37,933 nucleotides of DNA from assembly GCA_017461775.1 (NCBI GenBank), contig JAFTXD010000148.1:1-37933 (forward strand). The letters are read 5' to 3'. The notes below the pieces were generated by a model. That model was not told the origin of the DNA. It made no database searches and worked only from the letters and a program-made list of their open reading frames with translations. Within the stretch, counting starts at the first letter, position 1. Each line of letters starts with the position of its first letter. This DNA is from Lachnospiraceae bacterium. GTDB taxonomy: Bacteria; Bacillota; Clostridia; Lachnospirales; Lachnospiraceae. The translations under genes were made by a program, and so were the position numbers. Below are positions 5,764-37,933 of the stretch, one piece after another.

Positions 5764-7011
5764 TTAACCGAGTAATCCGGACTTGATATACATAAAGCCG
5801 GAAAATACATGAATCCAGAATAATACCCAGGCGCAATCAATTAAGAAGCATTGTAGCTTGGTTTGGGCAGAGGTCCGTTCCAACATAAGAAGGCGAAGGA
5901 GTGATATAATCCAGATAACCAGCATGGCAGACATTAGTGGCCATAAGAAGTTACCATGAGATAATTTTTCTCCACCTTCTCCCAGCAATGCTGCTTCAAA
6001 GAATCCTACAGCATAGCAACATTAGGCTAATTTGCCCATATCATCATGCAAAAAGAAGGGAAGGTCTATTAAGATGATGAAAATGGGGAATGCCATGCCC
6101 AGTAAAATGGACAAAGGAATATTCTCACTGAACATTTTCCAGACTTCCAGCCATTTGGTTATGATAATGGTAGTTTCTGCATTATTATTTCCGCCAAAAA
6201 TGTAGTAATCGACAAACTGCAGAAGGATGTATAGCAGTGCGGGGAGAGCGCACCATAGCATATTTAAACAATGCTTGAAATATGATTTTGCGCTTCCGTC
6301 CTGTTTAACAAGCAGGGAAATCCATTGTACCAGCATAATCAGTGCTACTGTAGGAACAAACACTTCTACAAACGTAGGCTTGGCAAGTGTGGAAAGCAGT
6401 AGCAAAACGGAAAGCAGAATGTAGTACTTTTTTAAACCGGTTTCTACTCTAAAAAAGATACCCTTATAGCTTTCATTTTTCTGAATACCCCAAATATCAT
6501 ACGCAAGACAGATGCATAGCAGGGAGAAAACGCGTACGCACATTTGTGTTGGGTTGTGAATCGGATTCATGGAGTAAACTCCCATAAATCGGTCTCCTGC
6601 ATCCAGCCATGGGAAATAGAGAGCCTGTACCATGGAAAGGCCAAAAGCGACAGCTGCAGCTTTGGCGGAAGAGTCTGTACACCCTTTTGCAGAAGTGACT
6701 TTTCGAATCATCCAATACAGTACAAGATATGCTGCCAATGTAAAGAAACAACTGACGTATCCGCCGGATACTTCCAGGGGGATTCGCAGAAGCTTATTCA
6801 GGGCAAGCACACAGAGGTGCCACATACAGTAGGGAACAGTCTGCCAGCCCTCCAACCAGTTTTCCTGTGTAAACATAGGCAAATATACATAAAGGTGTCC
6901 GTTATAGTCGTTCAATATTCCTGTCATGGAGTGTAACGCATATCGATAGGTTAGAATTGACAGAAGGATTCCTAAAAGTATTAATATCGTATGCTCTTTT
7001 TTGTGTGTCAT
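5764..7011 (-). pseudogene. polytopic membrane protein split by an in-frame TAA
   Basis: Residues 1-329 end at a TAA (6022-6024 on the plus strand) directly after DDMGKLA. The frame then continues without a shift as CCYAVGFFEAALLGEGGEKL and on for 85 more codons to a TAA at 5764-5766. The two parts form one hydrophobic protein of about 415 codons with many membrane segments and a conserved-looking GVYSMNPIHNPTQMCVRVFS loop. It resembles large multi-span (GT-C-like) envelope proteins, but no family is firmly recognised. AAGGAG lies 9 bases before the ATG. A nonsense mutation is the simple explanation; the 329-residue piece might still be made. Confidence 0.72.
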
Positions 7012-20692: not shown

Positions 20693-22096
20693 TTAGAAGG
20701 ATTCAATTTGTGTTTCTTCGGAAATGCCGATGTTTCGTAAATATGCTTTAAACTTTTCAATGGCATCGTAGAACAGGTTGTAGCTTTCCAAGGTCAGATT
20801 AAAGTGGTGAAGGGCAAGCTCGCGGTTACCTTCTTCAGCAGCATACCAGGAATCACAGGCATGGGTATGTACACCATCATGATGCCTTAATACTTCCTTG
20901 AATTCATGGCTTCCGGTAATTCGCGGATCGGTCTGGGAAGCAGCCCATTTGCCGAGCTTACAACCCTTGGGATTGTTCAGCTGTTCAATCTTTAAATGTT
21001 CAAATCCGGCCAGATTATTGTATACACGCCATGTAAAGGTATGGTGGTCAATCTGGAAGACGCGGAGCCAGTCCTGCGTGGAGAGGTCAGTGAAGCCCCT
21101 TGCCATATTATTACGGGTGGTATCAATGTATCTGCCGATTCGATAGAGATGATTTCCGGTAGTAATACAATCGTCCGTCAAGGTGCGGTAGCTTTCTGCA
21201 ATGGAATCAATCATCTGCACAAAATCGTTGGTAACATTGGACTGGGTATTGACGGCATCAAAAATATTGGCAATACGGTCATTGATAAGGGTCATATGCT
21301 CGCTCAGATTGCTGATATCCTGAACGGAGCGCTGTACCTTTTGGTTGCCTTCCATCAGGTGACTGGTGGTATTATTTACAAGGGCTACCAGCTCTTCGAT
21401 ACTTCCGCGAAGCTCGGTAACATACTGAACGATGGTATCTGCGGATTGGGTAGTATTGGCAGAGAGGTCTTTTACTTGATTTGCGACTACCGCAAAGCCC
21501 TTTCCGGCTTCGCCGGCGCGTGCAGCCTCGATGGAGGCGTTCAGAGCAAGAAGACCGCTTTTGCTTGCTACCTTTTTTACCATGTCAACAATATTGGTAA
21601 TCTGTTCGATTTTTTCATGGAAATCCTGTACCTTTTCATTGATACCATGAATTTCATTTACAGAATTTGTAACAGCTGTGATAGTTTCGTTCATATGATT
21701 CATGCTGCTTTGGGAAACTTCAATGGCTTCCTGAGCATCTTTTTTGATGTGTTCTACATCATCGGAAATGCTGTGGATGGATGTTTCAAAATCCTTACTT
21801 GCAGTAGACATGTTCTGGATGGCTGTAGTTTGTGATGTAACCTGCTCTACCATTTTCTTTACACAGGAATTATCACCGCTAAGCTCCATACCATGGTTAA
21901 TTTTCATCAGATGAACATTATTTGCCTTCTTCAACGAGAGAATAACTTTGTTTAAAGTGTCTGCCAGCTCAGGATCAGAAAAAGGAGCAGTGTCAATGGG
22001 AGCATGATTTCCTTCAATAATCTGATGCATTGCATCTAAAAGAAGTTTTTTATCATTTTCTTTTTCCGTTGTTGCATGTTTTCTTTTGAACATCAT
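20693..22096 (-). CDS. soluble methyl-accepting chemotaxis protein with CZB domain
   Basis: 467 residues, no membrane segment, so a cytoplasmic receptor. The signalling hairpin tip is at about 182-205 (LLALNASIEAARAGEAGKGF). The C-terminal chemoreceptor zinc-binding domain has the full motif: H352-x-F, C379-x-L-G-x-W and H406-xxx-H410, the expected Cys/His zinc ligands. CZB receptors sense zinc and oxidants such as hypochlorous acid through the cysteine. The start is the MMFKRK pair with GGAGG upstream; an upstream extension to 22273 would read through the tRNA gene and is artefactual. No other chemotaxis genes are in the window. Confidence 0.92.
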   Translation of the reverse strand: MMFKRKHATTEKENDKKLLLDAMHQIIEGNHAPIDTAPFSDPELADTLNKVILSLKKANNVHLMKINHGMELSGDNSCVKKMVEQVTSQTTAIQNMSTASKDFETSIHSISDDVEHIKKDAQEAIEVSQSSMNHMNETITAVTNSVNEIHGINEKVQDFHEKIEQITNIVDMVKKVASKSGLLALNASIEAARAGEAGKGFAVVANQVKDLSANTTQSADTIVQYVTELRGSIEELVALVNNTTSHLMEGNQKVQRSVQDISNLSEHMTLINDRIANIFDAVNTQSNVTNDFVQMIDSIAESYRTLTDDCITTGNHLYRIGRYIDTTRNNMARGFTDLSTQDWLRVFQIDHHTFTWRVYNNLAGFEHLKIEQLNNPKGCKLGKWAASQTDPRITGSHEFKEVLRHHDGVHTHACDSWYAAEEGNRELALHHFNLTLESYNLFYDAIEKFKAYLRNIGISEETQIESF

Positions 22097-22127
22097 AAAG
22101 TCCTCCATATAGCATACTGTTAGTACT

Positions 22128-22156
22128 ATTGTACCAGTATGTGCGAGCGAAAACAA
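22128..22156 (-). promoter_or_regulatory. chemoreceptor gene promoter
   Basis: On the minus strand TTGTTT (22156-22151), 17-bp spacer, TACAAT (22133-22128). An imperfect inverted repeat (CATACTG / CAGTATG, 22113-22119 and 22135-22141) straddles the -10 and could bind a regulator. Confidence 0.5.
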
Positions 22157-22170
22157 GCGGAAAAGCAGAT

Positions 22171-22201
22171 AAAAAAAGTGGATACCATCGGTACCCACTT
22201 T
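22171..22201 (-). terminator. terminator after tRNA-Pro
   Basis: Reading leftward, AAAGTGGgTACC pairs with GGTAtCCACTTT and runs into TTTTTTT. It lies 5 bases past the tRNA end. Confidence 0.9.
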
Positions 22202-22205
22202 GTCG

Positions 22206-22279
<74 letters not shown>

Positions 22280-29190: not shown

Positions 29191-30120
29191 ATGATTAACA
29201 AGTTAGTGAAAAAGATTCAGGAAACAAACGCTCCTATCGTTGTAGGCTTAGACCCTATGATGAAATTTATTCCTAAGCACATCACGGACAAGGCTTTTGC
29301 AGAGTATGGCGAGACCTTAGAGGGTGCAGCAGAGGCTATCTGGCAGTACAATAAGGGTATTGTAGATGCTATCTATGATTTGGTACCTGCGGTTAAGCCA
29401 CAGGTTGCAATGTATGAGCAGTTCGGAATTCCCGGCCTTATGGCTTTTAAGAAGACCGTAGATTACTGTAAGGAAAAGGGTCTGGTAGTTATCGGTGATA
29501 TTAAGAGAGGTGACATCGGTTCTACCTCAGAAGCATATGCAGTAGGACATCTTGGTAAGGTGCAGGTGGGAAGCAAGTCCTACTATGGTTTTGATGAGGA
29601 CTTTGTAACCGTAAATCCATACCTTGGAAGTGATGGCGTAACTCCTTTCACTAAGGTATGTAAGGAAGAAAGCAAGGGTATCTTCGTACTGGTGAAGACC
29701 TCTAATCCAAGTAGTGGCGAGTTCCAGGATCGTTTGATTGATGGCAGACCGCTCTATGAGTGGATGGGTGAGAAGGTTGCACAGTGGGGAGCGGACTGCA
29801 TGCCGGAGACCGGCTCCTACAGCTATGTGGGTGCAGTAGTAGGCGCTACTTATCCGGAGCAGGGCAAAATCCTTCGTAAGCTGATGCCAAATACCTTTAT
29901 CTTAGTACCGGGCTACGGTGCACAGGGTGGTAAGGGTGCAGACCTTGTTCACTTCTTCAACGAGGATGGACTTGGTGCAATCATCAACTCTTCCCGCGGT
30001 ATCATCGCAGCACATCAGCAGGAGAAGTACGCAAAGTACGGCGAGGCAGCATACGCAGATGCTTCCAGAGCAGCAGTTATCGATATGAGAGAAGATATTG
30101 CACAGGCACTTGGTAAATAA
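29191..30120 (+). CDS. pyrF: orotidine 5'-phosphate decarboxylase (PyrF type 2)
   Basis: 309 residues. It converts OMP to UMP. The active-site motif is GDIKRGDIGSTSEAY (Asp-Lys-Asp catalytic set), with VGLDPM at the N-terminus and the phosphate loop VPGYGAQGGKG near residue 250. The extra length over 230-residue PyrF marks the longer type 2 form seen in Clostridia and Actinobacteria. AAAGGACGG precedes the ATG. It is not linked to other pyr genes here. Codon usage is strongly biased, as for a well-expressed gene. Confidence 0.96.
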   Translation: MINKLVKKIQETNAPIVVGLDPMMKFIPKHITDKAFAEYGETLEGAAEAIWQYNKGIVDAIYDLVPAVKPQVAMYEQFGIPGLMAFKKTVDYCKEKGLVVIGDIKRGDIGSTSEAYAVGHLGKVQVGSKSYYGFDEDFVTVNPYLGSDGVTPFTKVCKEESKGIFVLVKTSNPSSGEFQDRLIDGRPLYEWMGEKVAQWGADCMPETGSYSYVGAVVGATYPEQGKILRKLMPNTFILVPGYGAQGGKGADLVHFFNEDGLGAIINSSRGIIAAHQQEKYAKYGEAAYADASRAAVIDMREDIAQALGK

Positions 30121-30283: not shown

Positions 30284-33200
30284 ATGACAACAAGAACATT
30301 TCTTTTAGGGGAACTAAATCGACTATTTTCAGTGCTGGAAACTATGCTGGGAAATGGTGGAAGAATGGGGCTTTTGGATGATCATCTCTGCTGTGAGGAT
30401 ATTATGTGTAAGGTACTGAATGATATCTATGGCTGGGAGCTGGTGAATCTGAACAGGCAGAAGAAAAATTACCCGGGAATTGACTTAGGGGATGAGCATA
30501 TTGGTCTGGGAGTACAGATATCCGCGGACAAGAGCAGTGGAAAAATTACGGAAACCTTGGAAAAGGTTATAAGGCATAGGGTGTATGAGACCTTTCCCAG
30601 TATCAAGGTACTGATTTTAGGGAGAAAGCAGAAGAGTTATTCCATAAGCAGAGAGGTGGGACTGGAAAAAACGGAGTTTGTGGCAGAAAGAGATATTCTG
30701 GATCTTGGGGATTTATTGGAGCAGTGTCAGAATATGGAAACGGAGAGACTGCAGAAGGTCTGTGAAGGTCTACGCTATGAGCTTGGATTGCCGGAGAAAA
30801 ATGCTTCTCCATATCCCCCAAAGACCCGGGAAAAAATCAGGGAATATATGAGCTTTTTGGAAAAGGAAAGTGAATACATTACCATACTGGGGTTGGGAGA
30901 AAAGCTTCCTATGGAGCAGGTGTGGATACAATTATCCCTGATGAATGTGAAGGATATGGACGCGGGGCTGCCGGACGGACAGTGGAGCTTTTTGCAACAG
31001 TACAATGAGTACAAAATATCCCATAGGAATGCTTATGATATGGAGGCTGTACTGGCAGACAGGGAAAATGCGGTGATTCTTGCCGGTCCGGGAATGGGAA
31101 AAAGTACGCTGTGCAAGAAGCTGTTTATGGAGTTTCGAAAAGAACGAAAAACGGTGGTGAAGGTGCGTCTGTTTGATGTGGCCAGATATATGCGGGATGG
31201 GAATTCCTTTGTAGAAGCGGTGTGTCTTGCTGCTTCTGAGGCAGTGTCCTTTCATCTGGAAAAGGAGGAATTGGACAGGGAGTTTGATGTGCTGATTCTG
31301 GATGGTCTGGATGAATGCAGCGATTTGCAGCATGAGGTTGCAAAGGGGATTACCGTATGGGGGATTGGGCATGAGGCAGTAAGAATTATTGTGACAAGCA
31401 GGCCCATAGGATATTGTGCGGCGGAGTTTGAAGGCTACAGGCATTTTCAGATTGTACCTTTGGAGGATGAAGAGCTGGAGCATGCGGCAATCACTTTGCT
31501 TCGCGTGATTAAGGAGGATTATGAAGAGGATTTTCAATGGTTTCAGCAGCAGATGAAGAGCCGCAGTGCCAGAGAACTGGCCTGTCGTAGTCCCCTGCTT
31601 TTGGGATTTTTGGTGCAGCTTTCCCTGGGACGCAGGAATCTGGGACAGTACAAGGTAGGATTATATAAGGATATTATGCAGGTCTGGCTGGAGGGCTCCA
31701 GCAGACATAATGAGAAAAAACGTAAGGATGTGGAACTGCAGGAGGGGATAGAAGCCATTGCTTATTACCTGATGAGTTCCATCGAAGGGAAAACACAGAG
31801 TGCTTACTTTAAGGAAAGCATTGTTTCTTATGTGGGAGCTTTTTTTCAGACCGAGCTGGGTGTGGGAAGACTACAGGCCAGTGGGGTGGCGGAGGATTGT
31901 CTGGAATTCTGGACACAGCGTGGAATATTGGAGCGGAATTACATAAGTGGAAGGGAAAGCTATCTCTTTCTTCATTTGAATGTAGGTGAATATCTGGCGG
32001 CAAGCCATCTTGCAAAAAAATCTGTACAGGAAAGGTGTGGATGGATACGGGAGAATTACCGCAAAAATATCTGGCATGAGACCATACGAATGCTTGTGGC
32101 ATGTGACACAGAGGGGCATGCATTGGAAGAATTATTGAGGCTGGGAAGGCAGGAGAAATTACCGGATGTAGCTGTTTTTCTTGCAGCTGAGGGTGTGGCA
32201 GAACGGGAAACGGAAGAGTGTCCGCAAGAGCTGTATGACCGGCTTTTATTCTATGTGCAGGGGGATAATCCCTATTTGGCGGAAAAGGCTGCAGAAGCAG
32301 CAGCGAAGCTGAGGGGAAAGGAGATAGACTGGCATGTAGAGACCTTGCTTACTCTTTGGAGGAGTGGACAAAGCTGGAGTAAGAATGCTGCATATCATAT
32401 CTACCTTTCTGTTCCGCAGGAGCAGCAGGATTATGAGGTGATTCGGGAATATGTGCTTTATTATTCTGATGAGCGGGATCATAGGACGCGGTGGAAATAT
32501 TCCCGGGATTTGGAGAATACCATTCTGTTTTTGCGGGAGGATGCGCAGGACGCTCCGGTGGTTGAGGCATTGAAGGGGATTTATTATCATCATTGCTCCG
32601 TATATGAAATGCAGCAGCTGGACACCTATTTTGAGAGACTGGGGCTGGGAAACTGGACAAAGGAATTTATGGAAAAGGTGAGATCAGAGATGCCGCCGTA
32701 TGATTTTGGGGAGATTCATAAAAAGCTGGATGGTGCGGAGGCAAGGCTGGTGCAGATATTGGCGGAGCTCTATGGCAGTGAAAGTACGGAGGAGGATTTG
32801 CAGGTATGCGTGGAGTATTCGAAGCTGACGGAGGCCGTGGAATTGATGCAGCGTCCGGTATCGGAATTATTCCTTTTGGAACGCGATCTGGAAAAAAGCT
32901 GTGCAGCATCTCTCTTACGTGCAGCCTGCGCAGCAGCGGAGGTTGACACGAAGAAGATACGTAAGGAAATATTCGTGATGCAGACCATGCCGGCGGATAG
33001 TGTGATATCCATTTCCGGACAGCGGAGAGTAAAGGTTCTTAAGAGTCCATGCTGGGAGAAAACCAGAGGAATGGTTTCTAAGGAAGATATTGTAGAAGGA
33101 CTTTGTAGTGTTTCTTCTATCATGGGAGATTTGGCGATGCAGGTTGCCTATGAAAACTGGGAGATGGAAGGACTTCGCAGTGAGGTTGTGGCACTGTTTG

Positions 33201-34039
33201 AAGGAAATAAGCCAAGCTGTATTTACAGAGCAGGAATTCTGCTTCTGGCAGAGGATGTGAAGACGGCATCCGATTTCCTTCTGCAGCGGATGCTGAAAGG
33301 GGATGGTGCGATTTTGCCGGAGTTGTTACAATTGCTTGGAATTTGTAACTGTCAGTTAGATAATTGGCAGATGTGGCTGGAGGCTTTGAACCGCTGTCTG
33401 GAGTATGGCAGGGAGGCAGTGCGGGCTGTAGCCCTGTATTTGCAGGGAGATGTACTCAGGCAGGTACCTAAGGAGGCGCTTCACCAACTGTTGCCAGTTG
33501 TAAAACATACGCTACAGGAGTGGGAGAATAAGAAGCTAAAATGCAGGCGTTGTAAGGAACATCCCTACCTGGAACCGGATGGATTCTGCCCGATTTGTCA
33601 CACCGGCGGCGAGTTGCCCAATGTGAATCTGTTAAAGGCACTGCTGAAATGGGAACAGGTATCAATGGATGAGCTTGCAGGATATATGAAGCATCCCCTA
33701 TATGATATGAATAAAGCTGCGCGGGAGGGAATGTTTTCCCTTTTGGAAAAACATCCGGAGCAAGTGGGGAAGGCGCTGGAAAAGGTGGAGAGAGGCTTTT
33801 ATCCCAAGGATGTTTTTGAGGTGATATTAAAGCTTGCACCAGAGATAACAGGATCTCATGAAAAGACATTGCTCCGCCTTGCAGATGGTAGCTGTCCGGA
33901 AAGAACTAAAGCCTTTTTAAAACAGCTGAATAACCAGAAATGGATAAGTCCGGCAGACAGGCGGGCGTACGTGGAGAGAATGCTTCGGCATGAAAATGAG
34001 GAAATCCGCAGTGAGGCTATGGCGGCGTGGTTAAAATAG
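30284..34039 (+). CDS. SMEK-like/NACHT STAND NTPase, probable antiphage NLR-like protein
   Basis: 1251 residues. Residues 10-115 resemble the SMEK domain (E38 in CCEDIMCKVLNDIYGWELVN, then IDLGD with D67, and VQIS with Q78), a PD-(D/E)xK-nuclease-like module. The NACHT NTPase follows: Walker A GPGMGKST at 268-275, Walker B LILDGLDEC at 337-345 with the NACHT acidic DGLDE, and sensor TSRP at 371-374. From about 500 to the end it is helical and HEAT-like, with a four-cysteine knuckle C1087, C1090, C1102, C1105. The plan effector-NTPase-sensor is that of bacterial NLR/Avs-type antiphage proteins, where the C-terminus detects a phage component and oligomerisation activates the effector. GGGAG precedes the ATG. 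Single-gene unit. Function is inferred. Confidence 0.85.
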   Translation: MTTRTFLLGELNRLFSVLETMLGNGGRMGLLDDHLCCEDIMCKVLNDIYGWELVNLNRQKKNYPGIDLGDEHIGLGVQISADKSSGKITETLEKVIRHRVYETFPSIKVLILGRKQKSYSISREVGLEKTEFVAERDILDLGDLLEQCQNMETERLQKVCEGLRYELGLPEKNASPYPPKTREKIREYMSFLEKESEYITILGLGEKLPMEQVWIQLSLMNVKDMDAGLPDGQWSFLQQYNEYKISHRNAYDMEAVLADRENAVILAGPGMGKSTLCKKLFMEFRKERKTVVKVRLFDVARYMRDGNSFVEAVCLAASEAVSFHLEKEELDREFDVLILDGLDECSDLQHEVAKGITVWGIGHEAVRIIVTSRPIGYCAAEFEGYRHFQIVPLEDEELEHAAITLLRVIKEDYEEDFQWFQQQMKSRSARELACRSPLLLGFLVQLSLGRRNLGQYKVGLYKDIMQVWLEGSSRHNEKKRKDVELQEGIEAIAYYLMSSIEGKTQSAYFKESIVSYVGAFFQTELGVGRLQASGVAEDCLEFWTQRGILERNYISGRESYLFLHLNVGEYLAASHLAKKSVQERCGWIRENYRKNIWHETIRMLVACDTEGHALEELLRLGRQEKLPDVAVFLAAEGVAERETEECPQELYDRLLFYVQGDNPYLAEKAAEAAAKLRGKEIDWHVETLLTLWRSGQSWSKNAAYHIYLSVPQEQQDYEVIREYVLYYSDERDHRTRWKYSRDLENTILFLREDAQDAPVVEALKGIYYHHCSVYEMQQLDTYFERLGLGNWTKEFMEKVRSEMPPYDFGEIHKKLDGAEARLVQILAELYGSESTEEDLQVCVEYSKLTEAVELMQRPVSELFLLERDLEKSCAASLLRAACAAAEVDTKKIRKEIFVMQTMPADSVISISGQRRVKVLKSPCWEKTRGMVSKEDIVEGLCSVSSIMGDLAMQVAYENWEMEGLRSEVVALFEGNKPSCIYRAGILLLAEDVKTASDFLLQRMLKGDGAILPELLQLLGICNCQLDNWQMWLEALNRCLEYGREAVRAVALYLQGDVLRQVPKEALHQLLPVVKHTLQEWENKKLKCRRCKEHPYLEPDGFCPICHTGGELPNVNLLKALLKWEQVSMDELAGYMKHPLYDMNKAAREGMFSLLEKHPEQVGKALEKVERGFYPKDVFEVILKLAPEITGSHEKTLLRLADGSCPERTKAFLKQLNNQKWISPADRRAYVERMLRHENEEIRSEAMAAWLK

Positions 34040-34412
34040 AATACTCTGATTCGATTTGCAGGCGGTTTGATGTTAATGATTCGAAGGAAAGTGATGCAAA
34101 TTATCGTAAAATGATGTAGTTTGATGAAAAAAGTGTGTAGTAGAATGCGGTGAATTCGGGCCGTGAGGATGTTGGATACTGAGGGTGATGAAGCGGAGAT
34201 ATGGTCTGTGGAGACACCTAAAAGAGAATAGTGATGATGTAATAGAGGCGAGGACGGTGTTGGGCTGTTCTCGTTTTTCAATTCTACCAAAATCTATGGT
34301 TAGTAATACCGTGTCAAATAGCTGAAAGCTATTGAGATGAATTTTTATATTATAAGTTCAATGACAAAAGAGTGGAGTTACAGTAGAATGAAATGAAGTA
34401 TAAAAATATCAC
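34040..34412. other. gene-free gap between NACHT gene and AbiE operon
   Basis: No supported gene on either strand. The rightward frames are short and interrupted. The leftward frame reaching 34290 mostly shadows the end of the NACHT gene and has no ribosome site. The gap holds one terminator (34249-34279) and a small hairpin AATAGCT / AGCTATT near 34318-34334. Base composition becomes AT-richer from here to the window end. Confidence 0.6.
34249..34279 (+). terminator. terminator downstream of the NACHT gene
   Basis: CGAGGAC pairs with GTTCTCG (one G-T) around about 11 nt, followed by TTTTT. It lies 210 bases after the NACHT stop. Confidence 0.6.
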
Positions 34413-34452
34413 ATATCTATCGGCAAAAAGAAAACAATTTGCCAATGGATAT
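34413..34452 (+). promoter_or_regulatory. AbiE operator copy 1 (upstream)
   Basis: Left arm ATATCTATCGGCAA and right arm TTGCCAATGGATAT, 14 bp each with two mismatches, around a 12-nt A-rich centre. Same left arm and same spacing as copy 2. It lies just before the -35 of the operon. Confidence 0.8.
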
Positions 34453-34455
34453 TGG

Positions 34456-34486
34456 TCTTGTGAAGTAGGGAAAATTGTGCTATGAT
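34456..34486 (+). promoter_or_regulatory. AbiE operon promoter
   Basis: TTGTGA at 34458-34463, 17-bp spacer, TATGAT at 34481-34486 with a TG extension (TGCTATGAT). It is sandwiched between the two operator copies. Confidence 0.65.
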
Positions 34487-34526
34487 ATATCTATCGGCAA
34501 AAAGAAGAAAAATTGCCGATAGATAT
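34487..34526 (+). promoter_or_regulatory. AbiE operator copy 2 (at the transcription start)
   Basis: Perfect 14-bp arms ATATCTATCGGCAA / TTGCCGATAGATAT around a 12-nt A-rich centre. It begins at the base after the -10 and ends at the ribosome site, so a bound repressor would block initiation. AbiEi-family antitoxins are known to autorepress by binding inverted repeats in this position. Confidence 0.85.
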
Positions 34527-34537
34527 GAGGCGATAAT

Positions 34538-35281
34538 ATGTGGTATGAAGATGTAATAAAGAGACTACCGGAAGATTTGGTATTTACACGAAAAGAACTC
34601 TATATAAAATTGCAGGAGCATAATCGGGAATTTAGTTACAACTCTTATAAATGGATTTTGGCTGAACTGATATCGAAAGGATTGATTTATAGACGGGGAT
34701 ATGATGCATATTCCAGAAAACTATCGAAAGTAGGTGCAGTGTATACACCGCTCTATAGTGAAAAGGCAAAAAAATTACAGCAATTGATTGAAGAAGAGTA
34801 TCCATTAGCTGAGTTTTGCATTTTTGAAGCCTTTTTATTGAACGAATTTTTGAATCATCAAATAGCAAACAATACGATTGTGATACAAATAGAGAAAGAG
34901 ATTGGTGGCTTCCTGTTTGATTTTTTGGAAGAGGAATATGTGGGGAGAGTATTGTACAAACCCAAAGAAGATATGTTTCAACGATATTGGTGTGAAGATT
35001 GCGTGGTTATTGTGGATAAGGTCAGCGAAGCACCAAAAGATAAACAAAATCCTTATGGTATGACTTTGGAAAAGTTATTGGTGGATATATTTGCGGAGTC
35101 AATAATAAGATATTTGTTTAGCCCTAGTGAATATCCATTGATTGTGGAAACTGCAATGGAAAGATATCTGATTGATGAGAAAAAAATGATGCGGTACGCA
35201 AGACGGAGAAATGCTGCTGAAAAGTTGAAAAATTACATGAAGAGTAAAGGAGAAGAGGATGCTTACGAGAGAAAATTATAG
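34538..35281 (+). CDS. AbiEi-like antitoxin/regulator
   Basis: 247 residues. The first 65 residues form a winged-helix-like domain (YEDVIKRLPEDLVFTRKELY, later SKGLIYRRGYDAY). A mixed domain follows with the AbiEi-like pattern of a short aromatic segment, a CVVIVDKVSEAP strand and MTLEKLLVDIFAESI (the usual LEKLLVDI/L motif that precedes the helical end). The tail is basic (KMMRYARRRNAAEKLKNYMK). It pairs with the AbiEii gene, overlapping it by 23 bases. It is expected to neutralise the toxin and repress the operon. GAGG lies 7 bases before the ATG. The exact Pfam family (AbiEi or DUF6577) cannot be settled here. Confidence 0.8.
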   Translation: MWYEDVIKRLPEDLVFTRKELYIKLQEHNREFSYNSYKWILAELISKGLIYRRGYDAYSRKLSKVGAVYTPLYSEKAKKLQQLIEEEYPLAEFCIFEAFLLNEFLNHQIANNTIVIQIEKEIGGFLFDFLEEEYVGRVLYKPKEDMFQRYWCEDCVVIVDKVSEAPKDKQNPYGMTLEKLLVDIFAESIIRYLFSPSEYPLIVETAMERYLIDEKKMMRYARRRNAAEKLKNYMKSKGEEDAYERKL

Positions 35282-36299
35282 CAAGGAGCATATAGAAGCA
35301 TTACAAAAGGATAGTGGAAATGATCCTGCTCTATTGGAAAGGGTGCTATTTGCATTTGGATTGTTGGAAGCAATATCAAGGGTGGAACTGCCCTTTATAT
35401 TTAAGGGTGGTACGTGCCTGATGCTTCTTTTGAAGAAAACAATGCGTTTATCTACGGATATTGATATTGTGGTTGAACCGGGAACGGATATTGATAATTA
35501 TATAGACAAAGCGGGTAAGTTATTTCCTTTTGTGCGAGTAGAGGAGCAAAAGAGAATTGGTAAGAATAGCATTGAAAAGAGACATTTTAAATTTGCGTAT
35601 CTGTCTCCTACTTCCGGAAGGGAAGTTACTATTTGGTTGGATGTTTTGTTTGAAGAGAACCATTATCCGTCAGTGGTCAAAAGAAGCATAGAGAATGAGT
35701 TGCTTTTGGTGGAGAAACCAGATATTTTGGTGCAGATTCCGAATATCAACTGTATTTTGGGAGATAAGCTTACTGCGTTTGCACCAAATACAACAGGTAT
35801 TCCTTTTGGTGTCTCAAAAGAGCTTGAAATTATGAAGCAAATGTTTGACTGTATGACTTTGTTTCGTGAAATGAGTGATTTTAAAGAAGTAAAGAGTACC
35901 TACGATAGAATCGTGAAAGCAGAATTGGCATATCGAGGATTGGACATCAGTAAAGAGGATGTTTTAAAGGATACGATTAATGCTTGTGTATGCATTATAG
36001 GAAGAGGCAGTATACGGGCAGATGACTATAGGCATTATCAAAAGGGATTGAATGGTATCAGAGGGCATATCTACAAAACAAAATATAACGGGGAATATGC
36101 GGCGCTGTACGCTTGTGAAGTTATGTATCTGGCGGCAAGCGTTTTGACGAATCAAGAGAACTGTCCTCTGATAACGGAACCTGAAAAATACATAGATTCT
36201 AAGATCGCGTTAAAGGAATATCAAAAGCTTTCTTATATTAAGAAAGCGAAGTTGGAAGCATATGGTTATGTGGTAGAAGCCGTAAAGATGTTGGAGTAA
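35259..36299 (+). CDS. AbiEii/AbiGii-type nucleotidyltransferase toxin
   Basis: 346 residues. The polymerase-beta-type nucleotidyltransferase core is intact: FKGGTCL (K49-G-G-T), MRLSTDIDIVV with metal aspartates D67 and D69, and a third aspartate D128 in TIWLDVLF. The C-terminal half contains the AbiEii-type LGDKLTAFAPNTTG motif with its lysine, then a helical domain. AbiEii/MenA-like toxins transfer nucleotides to tRNA or other targets and stop growth, aborting phage infection. AAGGAG lies 7 bases before the ATG inside the antitoxin gene, the classic toxin-second overlap. The next gene starts 12 bases after the stop. Confidence 0.9.
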   Translation: MLTRENYSKEHIEALQKDSGNDPALLERVLFAFGLLEAISRVELPFIFKGGTCLMLLLKKTMRLSTDIDIVVEPGTDIDNYIDKAGKLFPFVRVEEQKRIGKNSIEKRHFKFAYLSPTSGREVTIWLDVLFEENHYPSVVKRSIENELLLVEKPDILVQIPNINCILGDKLTAFAPNTTGIPFGVSKELEIMKQMFDCMTLFREMSDFKEVKSTYDRIVKAELAYRGLDISKEDVLKDTINACVCIIGRGSIRADDYRHYQKGLNGIRGHIYKTKYNGEYAALYACEVMYLAASVLTNQENCPLITEPEKYIDSKIALKEYQKLSYIKKAKLEAYGYVVEAVKMLE

Positions 36300-36311
36300 G
36301 GAAGTGGTAAT

Positions 36312-36929
36312 TTGAGATATTATATTGCTGATTTGCACTTCTTTCATGCAAATATGAACACGCGCATGGACAGGCGCGGTTTTAAAAGCGTGGAAGAGAT
36401 GAATGAATATATGATTGAGAAATGGAATGGCAAGGTTCGAAAAAATGATGATGTGATTATCATAGGTGATTTGTCTTGGGGCAATGCAGAAGAAACAAAT
36501 GCTTTACTTAAGCGGTTAAATGGGAGACTTTATCTGATACAGGGAAATCATGACCGCTTTCTGACAAATAAAGATATGGATGCAAGTCGGTTTCGGTGGA
36601 TCAAATCATATGAGGAGCTTTCGGATAATAAGCGGAAAGTTGTTTTGTGTCATTATCCTATTATGTGTTATAACGGACAGTATCGCTTGGATGAAAATGG
36701 GGAACCTAGAACATACATGTTATATGGGCACGTCCATGATACGCAGGATCAAAGGCTCTTGGAGCAGTTTCAGGAGATAACCAGACAGACGGTTACTATA
36801 GATGCGCAGGGGAATGAGAGAAATATTCCCTGTAATATGATCAATTGTTTTTGTATGTATTCGGATTATGTGCCACTGACGTTGGATGAATGGATAACAC
36901 TTGAAAAAACAAAGAGGAAAAAAGAATGA
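36312..36929 (+). CDS. calcineurin-like metallophosphoesterase
   Basis: 205 residues, soluble. All metallophosphoesterase motifs are present: D7-x-H9 (ADLHFFH), GD at 52-53 (IIIGDLSWGN), GNHD at 78-81, H114 (LCHYPI) and GHVH at 139-142. The enzyme binds two metals and cleaves phosphoester bonds, possibly of a nucleotide or nucleic acid. The start is a TTG at 36312 with AAGGAAG 8 bases upstream; there is no better ATG. It lies between the toxin gene (12-base gap) and the TOTE gene (4-base ATGA overlap), so it belongs to the operon. It could process the toxin's or primase's product, but this is a guess. Confidence 0.88.
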   Translation: MRYYIADLHFFHANMNTRMDRRGFKSVEEMNEYMIEKWNGKVRKNDDVIIIGDLSWGNAEETNALLKRLNGRLYLIQGNHDRFLTNKDMDASRFRWIKSYEELSDNKRKVVLCHYPIMCYNGQYRLDENGEPRTYMLYGHVHDTQDQRLLEQFQEITRQTVTIDAQGNERNIPCNMINCFCMYSDYVPLTLDEWITLEKTKRKKE

Positions 36930-37933
36930 ACATAGAAGCCTATAATCTTGATTCCCTCAGAAAATTAGTCAGAGCCTTGCAGGCAGAAAATAAAGAACTC
37001 CGTGAATTGCTTGAAAAGGCGGAAATTCCGTATGCAAATAGTGAGGTATTTGCCGATACGCCTGGCAGGAAGGAAGAATTTGATTTAGACCAGGGCGGAA
37101 GAATCACGCAGCAGTTCATCGATAAAAAGCTTGCGGTTCGCTTCTTCTCTATGTTTTGGGGAAGGGAGGATGTATTTGCCAGAAGAGCAAAGAATGGCAA
37201 TTACTATCCACAATGCGATAACCGTTGGAATAATGCACTATGTCCGAAGCAAAAGGGTGAGAAGACTTATTGTGGGAATTGTGAACATTCATGTTGGACT
37301 GAACTGACACCGGAAATTTTGATGAATCATCTACTGGGGTATCGAGAAGATGGGGCAGATGTGATTGGTGTGTATCCACTTTTGGCAGATGGAACCTGTC
37401 GCTTTCTGGTCTTTGATTTTGATAATCATGAAAAGGATGCGGCAGAAACGGATTTTGCCAATGAAGATGAAATGTGGCATGATGAGGTGGATGCACTACG
37501 GCTTATTTGTAAGCAAAATGGTATTGATGCTCTTGTGGAGCGCTCGCGTTCAGGGAAAGGTGCGCATGTGTGGATTTTCTTCCAGAAGCCAATACCTGCT
37601 TCTTTGGCAAGAAATTTTGGTTTTCTGTTGTTGGATAAGGGTGCAACTACGATTAATCTCAAATCCTTTAAATATTATGACCGAATGTATCCCTCGCAGG
37701 ATGTAACAGACTGCATTGGAAATCTGATTGCTTTACCGTTGCAGGGTCGGGCATTAAAAAGCGGAAACAGTGCCTTTGTGGATGAAAACTGGAACGCTTA
37801 CCCACAGCAGTGGGAACGATTGCTTCAAACAAAAAAGTTGCTACAGGAAGAAGTAGAACAATATATTGCAAAATGGCAGGGAGACTTGTTTTTGCGTAAT
37901 AAAGCATCCGATTATGTCATGAGTAAGAATCGG
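36926..37933 (+). CDS. TOTE-type archaeo-eukaryotic primase protein (5' part, runs off window)
   Basis: 336 codons, open to the window end. After a short coiled start (about 1-35, RKLVRALQAENKELRELLEK) comes the TOTE primase domain: FFSMFWGREDVFARRAKNGN, a cysteine cluster (YPQC, LCPKQ, YCGNCEHSC) that likely binds zinc, the catalytic DxD in FLVFDFDN (D164, D166), ERSRSGKGAHVWIFF with H214, and LIALPLQGRALKSGNSAFVD. TOTE conflict-system proteins join such a primase to a superfamily 2 helicase and often a nuclease; those parts would lie beyond 37933. The start overlaps the phosphoesterase stop (ATGA). RBS: AAAGAGGAAA upstream. Confidence 0.85.
   Translation, partial: MNIEAYNLDSLRKLVRALQAENKELRELLEKAEIPYANSEVFADTPGRKEEFDLDQGGRITQQFIDKKLAVRFFSMFWGREDVFARRAKNGNYYPQCDNRWNNALCPKQKGEKTYCGNCEHSCWTELTPEILMNHLLGYREDGADVIGVYPLLADGTCRFLVFDFDNHEKDAAETDFANEDEMWHDEVDALRLICKQNGIDALVERSRSGKGAHVWIFFQKPIPASLARNFGFLLLDKGATTINLKSFKYYDRMYPSQDVTDCIGNLIALPLQGRALKSGNSAFVDENWNAYPQQWERLLQTKKLLQEEVEQYIAKWQGDLFLRNKASDYVMSKNR

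What the first reader, a model, noticed from the sequence alone, without database searches (positions are those of the whole stretch)
34413..37933. One operon joining an AbiE toxin-antitoxin pair, a metallophosphoesterase and a TOTE primase
The four genes are read in one direction with overlaps or gaps of 23 bp overlap, 12 bp gap and 4 bp overlap, behind one promoter with two operator copies. Each part is known singly: AbiE as abortive infection, and TOTE primase/helicase as a predicted conflict system. The tight coupling suggests they act together, for example a primase/helicase that senses or copies invader nucleic acid, a phosphoesterase that processes ends or nucleotides, and a nucleotidyltransferase toxin as the suicide step held off by AbiEi. 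The region is AT-richer than the housekeeping genes, in line with transfer. The composite role is inference.
Basis: partly seen in the sequence, partly recalled or inferred. Interest (0 to 1): 0.78.

Follow-up and report, generated by a model that had tools for sequence, protein, structure and literature searches.

The report
AbiE toxin operon with two riders
A common bacterial toxin-antitoxin operon (AbiE) here carries two extra genes behind it, a phosphoesterase and a primase-helicase; relatives suggest that these two are not one fixed machine with AbiE but exchangeable riders that have settled more than once in the same place behind different AbiE operons.

Summary
Four co-directional genes (AbiEi, AbiEii, small metallophosphoesterase MPE, TOTE primase) have the stated overlaps and two operator copies, but the window is a whole 37,933-bp contig of a draft genome, so TOTE is cut after 336 codons (relatives: about 990).

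The reading as one joint system is not supported. In 397 genomes of the bacterial family, an MPE orthologue next to TOTE was found only in the window. Of 80 AbiEii relatives kept by a scan, none has TOTE; only the three closest (82-83% identity) have MPE, broken in two of them while AbiEii stays open.

The pairings are nevertheless probably not random. Outside the window, AbiEii-family genes lie directly upstream of 3 of 49 MPE and 4 of 45 TOTE places, and directly downstream of none; they belong to several unrelated toxin lineages. In one lineage, a toxin followed by MPE and one followed by TOTE are 81% identical, so the slot behind AbiE changes content.

Best reading: an ordinary AbiE operon whose tail slot has collected two exchangeable accessory genes, here in series. 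Counts are small and joint function is untested. The recurrent slot is the interesting part.

The parts
34407..34452 (+). operator copy 1 (imperfect inverted repeat)
   Evidence: 46-nt direct repeat; two-copy layout also visible upstream of abiE in L173 and L096
34458..34486 (+). promoter-like site (TTGTGA-17-TATGAT, TG before second hexamer)
   Evidence: consensus scan, (17 found against 13.1 in shuffles, so weak by itself)
34481..34526 (+). operator copy 2 (14-nt perfect inverted repeat, 12-nt spacer)
   Evidence: such repeats upstream of 42 of 67 abiE operons, window included, 0.4% of shuffles
34538..35281 (+). AbiEi antitoxin / autorepressor (DUF6577)
35259..36299 (+). AbiEii nucleotidyltransferase toxin, motifs I/II intact (G50, G51, R63, D67, D69)
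36312..36929 (+). small calcineurin-like metallophosphoesterase (TTG start), metal-binding motifs intact
36926..37933 (+). TOTE primase, N-terminal 336 codons (AEP domain); gene cut by contig end

Best explanation
A standard type IV AbiE toxin-antitoxin operon whose tail slot has been filled, in series, by two accessory genes that move independently. Shown here: AbiEi and AbiEii are a conserved pair, many with palindromic operators; MPE and TOTE usually stand apart from AbiE, but each recurs directly behind unrelated AbiEii lineages, and within one lineage some members carry one, some the other and some neither. Inferred: all four genes are transcribed from the AbiEi-repressed promoter; AbiEii stops growth by a nucleotidyl transfer when AbiEi fails; MPE and TOTE work on their own (MPE hydrolysing phosphoesters; TOTE priming and unwinding, perhaps cutting, invading DNA); riding behind a toxin-antitoxin pair gives them a regulated promoter and protection from loss.
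For: Pair conserved: AbiEi found beside AbiEii in 78 of 80 loci; in the two exceptions, L095 and L114, the contig begins at AbiEii. Operators in 42 of 67 promoters. MPE: AbiEii directly upstream, same strand, in 3 of 49 places with at least 300 bp upstream; TOTE: 4 of 45; window not counted. Directly downstream: 0 of 51 and 0 of 47, of which 51 and 41 have at least 300 bp beyond the match. Base rate: 62 AbiEii matches in 60 genomes, giving rough binomial P of 8e-7 and 2e-9. Mostly unrelated toxins: L034, L035, L069, L201 and the window's AbiEii share about 27-38% at best, mostly over short parts, or nothing detectable. Swap: L034 AbiEii (MPE behind) and L073 AbiEii (TOTE behind) are 81% identical over 302 aa; L223 (decayed TOTE behind) is 87% identical to L073 over 199 aa. 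Of six members at 77% or more, two carry TOTE (one decayed), one MPE, two neither within 1.5 kb, one meets a contig end. Window lineage: MPE or a piece of it follows AbiEii in each of the four other members found at 82% or more (L173 intact; L096, L095 and the tail fragment G037 broken), TOTE in none.
Against: Counts are small and some are related (G373 with G296; G037 with the window). Counting related copies once, TOTE is 3 of 45 (P 6e-7) and MPE 2 of 49 (P 1.5e-4). Defence-island clustering raises the base rate: with 30-fold inflation P is 0.016 for MPE and 0.001 for TOTE, and 0.097 and 0.012 with related copies counted once. In other families of the phylum 0 of 27 TOTE loci (24 with at least 300 bp upstream) have AbiEii nearby, and 0 of 3 further TOTE genes in the genus sample do. 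A more distant relative of the window's AbiEii, G051 (69% over its first 127 residues), has lost its middle and has neither MPE nor TOTE in the 4.4 kb read behind it. Cotranscription is not tested. On re-reading I lowered this from 0.66 because of the once-counted MPE figure.
Confidence: 0.63

Rival explanations
1. Plain hitchhiking: AbiE, MPE and TOTE are unrelated accessory genes that meet by chance in defence islands, with no preferred slot.
For: Most MPE and TOTE genes have other upstream neighbours (46 of 49 and 41 of 45 places lack AbiEii directly upstream). With a 30-fold base rate and related copies counted once, the MPE figure is not significant (P 0.097). Other genes also follow window-type AbiEii: PIN, Fic, SF1-type helicase, WYL, DUF2971, Sel1. 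A SMEK-NACHT gene lies just upstream in the window. No matched set of other defence genes was counted as a control.
Against: Orientation is one-sided (7 directly upstream, 0 directly downstream), several toxin lineages are involved, and content differs within one lineage.
Confidence: 0.27
2. One reading: one dedicated four-gene defence system with a sensor or copier (TOTE), end processor (MPE) and suicide toxin (AbiEii).
For: Tight overlaps and the recurrent pairing of each rider with AbiE.
Against: Order found only in the window; MPE broken while AbiEii stays open in L095 and L096; TOTE absent from 80 of 80 AbiEii relatives, 58 of them with at least 3.5 kb downstream.
Confidence: 0.06
3. The arrangement is a dead or chimeric stretch: a decaying island or an assembly join near the contig end.
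For: Draft genome in 172 contigs, 82% complete; contig ends inside TOTE and its rest is not found in the assembly. Broken MPE or TOTE copies occur in relatives.
Against: The four frames are open as far as they go, with intact motifs; the MPE-TOTE junction is a natural ATGA overlap about 1 kb inside the contig.
Confidence: 0.04

Closest known systems
AbiE type IV toxin-antitoxin systems (Streptococcus agalactiae AbiE; M. tuberculosis Rv2827c/Rv2826c)
   Same: Antitoxin-toxin order, inverted repeats at the promoter, AbiEii motif II residues R63, D67 and D69 at the same numbers and a motif I GG one residue later than in S. agalactiae. The two repeat pairs resemble those described for Rv2827c.
   Different: The 2014 paper's abstract describes AbiE as bicistronic; here two further genes follow. 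The antitoxin is DUF6577, with no match to a solved structure.
TOTE (Pfam PF22548 AEP-TOTE) primase-helicases
   Same: Same AEP domain; two full-length relatives scanned add a ResIII/DEAD helicase and a PLD-like domain, the latter at or below Pfam's cut-off.
   Different: Usually no AbiE upstream; here it follows MPE and is cut by the contig end.
Small metallophosphoesterases (aq_1665, PDB 1xm7; PHROG 547)
   Same: Sequence family and metal motifs.
   Different: Substrate unknown; here behind AbiEii.
CRISPR-associated primase-polymerase (PDB 7nqd, 7nqf; identity with CAPP recalled)
   Same: Related AEP domain.
   Different: Far below NCBIfam's cut-off (87 against 200 bits); no CRISPR link was examined.

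Membership tests
AbiE type IV toxin-antitoxin | AbiEi directly before AbiEii, same strand | tested here: met
AbiE type IV toxin-antitoxin | AbiEii catalytic motifs I and II (hG[G/S]x15DhD) | tested here: met
   alignment against PMC3985639 passages
AbiE type IV toxin-antitoxin | AbiEii motifs III and IV | tested here: inconclusive
   KLTAFAPN resembles KLxAaxxR, which the paper gives for the COG4849 branch, but lacks its arginine; motif IV was not aligned with the published one
AbiE type IV toxin-antitoxin | inverted-repeat operators at the promoter | tested here: met
AbiE type IV toxin-antitoxin | AbiEi fold (winged helix plus antitoxin domain) | tested here: inconclusive
AbiE type IV toxin-antitoxin | toxicity and neutralisation | not testable with these tools
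   needs experiment
TOTE | AEP-TOTE domain | tested here: met
   1.9e-74
TOTE | helicase and PLD-like domains in the same protein | not testable with these tools
   contig ends; found in the relatives L055 and L059
calcineurin-like metallophosphoesterase | DxH, GD, GNHD, H, GHxH (motif names recalled) | tested here: met
   invariant in alignment A2 of six sequences
single four-gene AbiE-MPE-TOTE system | gene order conserved across genomes | tested here: not met

The most novel reading that the evidence does not exclude
AbiE operons of this family (Lachnospiraceae by the titles of the nearest named loci) carry a modular tail slot: the AbiEi-repressed promoter expresses interchangeable effectors (MPE or TOTE, perhaps also the PIN, Fic and helicase genes seen there), so AbiE serves as a regulated chassis that releases a second defence when AbiEi is depleted. 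The window would hold two effectors in series.
Probability: 0.2. Interest if true: 0.72.

Novelty: new variant of a known kind. Interest (0 to 1): 0.45.

Why it matters
AbiE was described as a bicistronic operon (PMC3985639 abstract). A recurrent tail slot that holds a phosphoesterase in one place and a primase-helicase in another, behind nearly the same toxin, would show how toxin-antitoxin loci recruit defence cargo, and gives a direct test of whether AbiEi depletion switches on a second effector. It also supplies a genomic partner for TOTE proteins, on which my searches of the held library found no paper.

Tried and rejected
Four-gene order as conserved: rejected. AbiE-MPE as special to the window's lineage: my first conclusion (notebook), overturned when Pfam showed unrelated AbiEii genes before MPE in L034 and L035 and before TOTE in L073. 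TOTE-AbiE adjacency as general in the phylum: not found (0 of 27; the profile used does reach outside the family, finding an Arcobacter AbiEii at 9e-10). MPE-TOTE junction pattern in viral contigs: none, with the window as positive control; it was not run on genome contigs, whose single scan went to AbiEii. TOTE in viral contigs: none confirmed. Rest of TOTE elsewhere in the draft genome: none. tRNA gene at the attachment-like sequence behind L095 and L053: none called. Solved structures for the AbiEi and AbiEii profiles: none useful.

Literature: no paper in the held library holds 'TOTE' with 'archaeo-eukaryotic primase' and 'conflict', 'TOTE conflict', or 'TOTE' with 'primase' and 'conflict'. 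Two wider searches listed 3 and 1 papers, seen as listings only; one found none. The eLife paper 10.7554/eLife.52696 has no mention of TOTE, AEP or AbiE (term search only). AbiEii with metallophosphoesterase: one paper on a phage genome, listing only; with calcineurin-like phosphoesterase: none. PMC3985639 and PMC7319586: abstracts and passages seen, not the whole texts.

Rows dropped: L225 (G315 TOTE, 39%) gave no place. Places with under 300 bp upstream (2 of 51 MPE, 2 of 47 TOTE) were left out of the denominators. L042, L050 and L051 MPE were missed by the first gene caller but are counted. MPE matches under about 42% identity, whose list was also cut, were not followed as orthologues; one such (31%) lies 12 kb from TOTE in L071. 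Of 32 AEP-TOTE rows, the window's aside, 29 had a new locus and 27 of these gave a TOTE frame. The 2,900 genes per genome is an assumption. The 9 downstream proteins were chosen for length from the 30.
Full report
Observation. The four frames, their overlaps and the two operator copies are as reported. Profile searches name them AbiEi (DUF6577; PADLOC AbiEi), AbiEii, a calcineurin-like phosphoesterase and AEP-TOTE. The stretch is AT-richer than the DNA before it. The window is the entire contig C125 of a 172-contig draft genome, so TOTE breaks off at codon 336; the remaining part was not found in the assembly. It is the only AEP-TOTE and the only AbiEii match in that assembly.

The AbiE pair. 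AbiEii has motif I glycines at 50 and 51 and motif II R63, D67 and D69. In the S. agalactiae toxin, changes at G49, R63, D67 and D69 abolished toxicity, while G50A alone did not (PMC3985639, abstract and passages); the motif II numbers agree, the glycines are shifted by one. In 80 related loci from a genome scan (524 pattern matches, 422 relatives, best 80 kept) AbiEi was found beside AbiEii in 78. At least one palindromic operator (11-nt arms, one mismatch allowed) occurs upstream of 42 of 67 operons, window included, against 0.4% of shuffles; two or more pass in only 6 of 67, and neither the window's first copy nor any site of L096 passes that test. By eye the window, L173 and L096 keep a two-copy layout with different arm sequences. 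Two repeat pairs resemble the arrangement described for Rv2827c (PMC7319586, abstract and passages). This part is ordinary AbiE.

Is the four-gene order conserved? In the same 397 family genomes, searches with MPE, TOTE and window-type AbiEii gave matches in 161, 56 and 38 genomes at E up to 0.001, the window's genome and weak paralogues included. No stretch fetched around 47 TOTE places holds an MPE at 38% identity or more, and no stretch around 51 MPE places holds TOTE; a 31% MPE paralogue lies 12 kb from TOTE in L071. Among the 80 AbiEii relatives, MPE follows in 3 and TOTE in 0; 72 loci have at least 700 bp and 58 at least 3.5 kb downstream. The three with MPE are exactly the three at 82-83% identity; the others are at 59% or less. 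L173 (Acetatifactor) has an intact MPE; L096 (Blautia schinkii) keeps about the first 43 codons; L095 has lost most of the middle in frame; a fourth relative, G037, keeps about 32 codons of AbiEii's tail and a broken MPE. A more distant relative, G051 (69% over 127 residues), has a toxin gene with its middle lost and neither rider behind it. So MPE probably joined this lineage once and decays while AbiEii stays open in two of the members; TOTE is an addition seen only in the window. A tree of 40 MPE rows puts window, L173 and G037 (30% of columns filled) in one supported group of five (98/94) with two MPEs not linked to AbiE; one origin of the linkage is neither shown nor excluded.

The riders recur behind other AbiE operons. 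Pfam scans of neighbours showed AbiEii-family genes directly before MPE in L034 (G329, behind a DUF6088 gene) and L035 (G136, behind AbiEi_4), and before TOTE in L073 (G296, behind DUF6088), L069 (G329, behind a 195-aa gene of no family), L201 (G142) and L223 (G373, decayed). Two further AbiEii genes lie near TOTE but not within that distance (L062, L218). With 62 AbiEii matches in 60 genomes and an assumed 2,900 genes per genome, chance gives P of about 8e-7 and 2e-9. Counting related copies once gives 1.5e-4 (2 of 49) and 6e-7 (3 of 45). So TOTE behind AbiE is the firmer of the two, MPE the weaker. The toxins involved are mostly unrelated, but L034 (MPE behind) and L073 (TOTE behind) are 81% identical over 302 residues, and L223 is 87% identical to L073 over 199. 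Of six members of that lineage at 77% identity or more, two are followed by TOTE (one decayed), one by MPE, two by neither within 1.5 kb and one meets a contig end. The slot therefore changes content on a short time scale.

Limits of the pattern. In a sample of 299 genomes of the phylum, 0 of 27 TOTE loci examined (24 with room) had AbiEii in the flank, and in 41 genomes of the genus none of the three other substantial TOTE matches, one of them in two pieces, did. On plasmids TOTE has varied partners: of 8 records read out of 105 with a match, one has TOTE 25 bp behind a HigB/HTH pair (Acinetobacter), one is followed by an unnamed gene and AbiEii (Arcobacter), one by HipA-type genes after a small hypothetical gene (Acidiphilium); five show no toxin-antitoxin annotation in the stretch. 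Window-type AbiEii is also followed by other genes: of 9 downstream proteins scanned, chosen for length, seven have a Pfam family, including PIN, Fic, an AAA/SF1-type helicase, WYL and DUF2971, and 30 of 75 loci with at least 300 bp downstream show some same-strand ORF within 80 bp, many of them short. MPE relatives are also common in phages: 1,388 of 50,697 phage records match, 71 of them over at least 80% of the query, the nearest at 62% in an unannotated faecal phage contig, and 5 viral contigs were found in another collection; so MPE may have come from phages. TOTE matches one phage record only but 105 plasmid records.

Mechanism. Shown: gene layout, conserved AbiE pair and operators, independent and recurrent linkage of MPE and TOTE. 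Inferred: cotranscription under AbiEi control; AbiEii as growth-arresting nucleotidyltransferase; MPE as phosphoesterase of unknown substrate; TOTE as primase-helicase with a PLD-like domain acting on foreign DNA (domain content from the relatives L055 and L059; the conflict role is Pfam's label). I take MPE and TOTE to be riders that gain a regulated promoter and protection from loss behind a toxin-antitoxin pair; PMC3985639's abstract states that AbiE can stabilise mobile elements. That AbiE needs them, or they it, is made unlikely by decay of MPE beside open AbiEii and by their common occurrence without AbiE upstream.

Verdict. A new variant of a known kind: ordinary AbiE with a filled tail slot. 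The four-gene machine is unlikely. The changing slot deserves a proper survey with matched controls.

Noticed in passing
window 30284-34039: A 1251-aa SMEK plus NACHT-like (STAND-type) protein, likely another defence gene, lies just before the AbiE operon and just after a core-type OMP decarboxylase gene (29191-30120).
   Followed up: partly
L095 about 1660-1690 and L053 about 6790-6830 (minus): Both broken AbiE-MPE copies are followed by a similar sequence resembling the 3' end of a tRNA (ggttcgatt...), perhaps an integration site; ARAGORN calls no tRNA there.
   Followed up: partly
L302 3183-6322: On an Acinetobacter towneri plasmid TOTE follows a HigB toxin/HTH pair by 25 bp, so TOTE also sits behind another toxin-antitoxin type.
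   Followed up: partly
L305 3866-7745: In Arcobacter cloacae TOTE is followed by an unnamed 212-aa gene and an AbiEii, the reverse order.
   Followed up: no
L035, L037, L038, L040: MPE is directly followed by a gene of one cluster, an SRAP protein in L035, in 4 of 17 MPE ORFs, hinting at a DNA-damage link.
   Followed up: no
L059, L062, L063: TOTE is directly followed by a large serine recombinase in three loci, a possible mobile unit.
   Followed up: no
L054, L055, L068, L069, L070, L072: Six TOTE loci have a gene of one cluster within 4 kb; the three members scanned (L055, L068, L070) carry HATPase_c_4, two of them also Schlafen AlbA_2.
   Followed up: no
window 22205-22279 (minus): A tRNA-Pro(cgg) gene overlaps the listed start of the 526-aa chemoreceptor ORF (20693-22273), so the true start of that ORF probably lies further in.
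   Followed up: no
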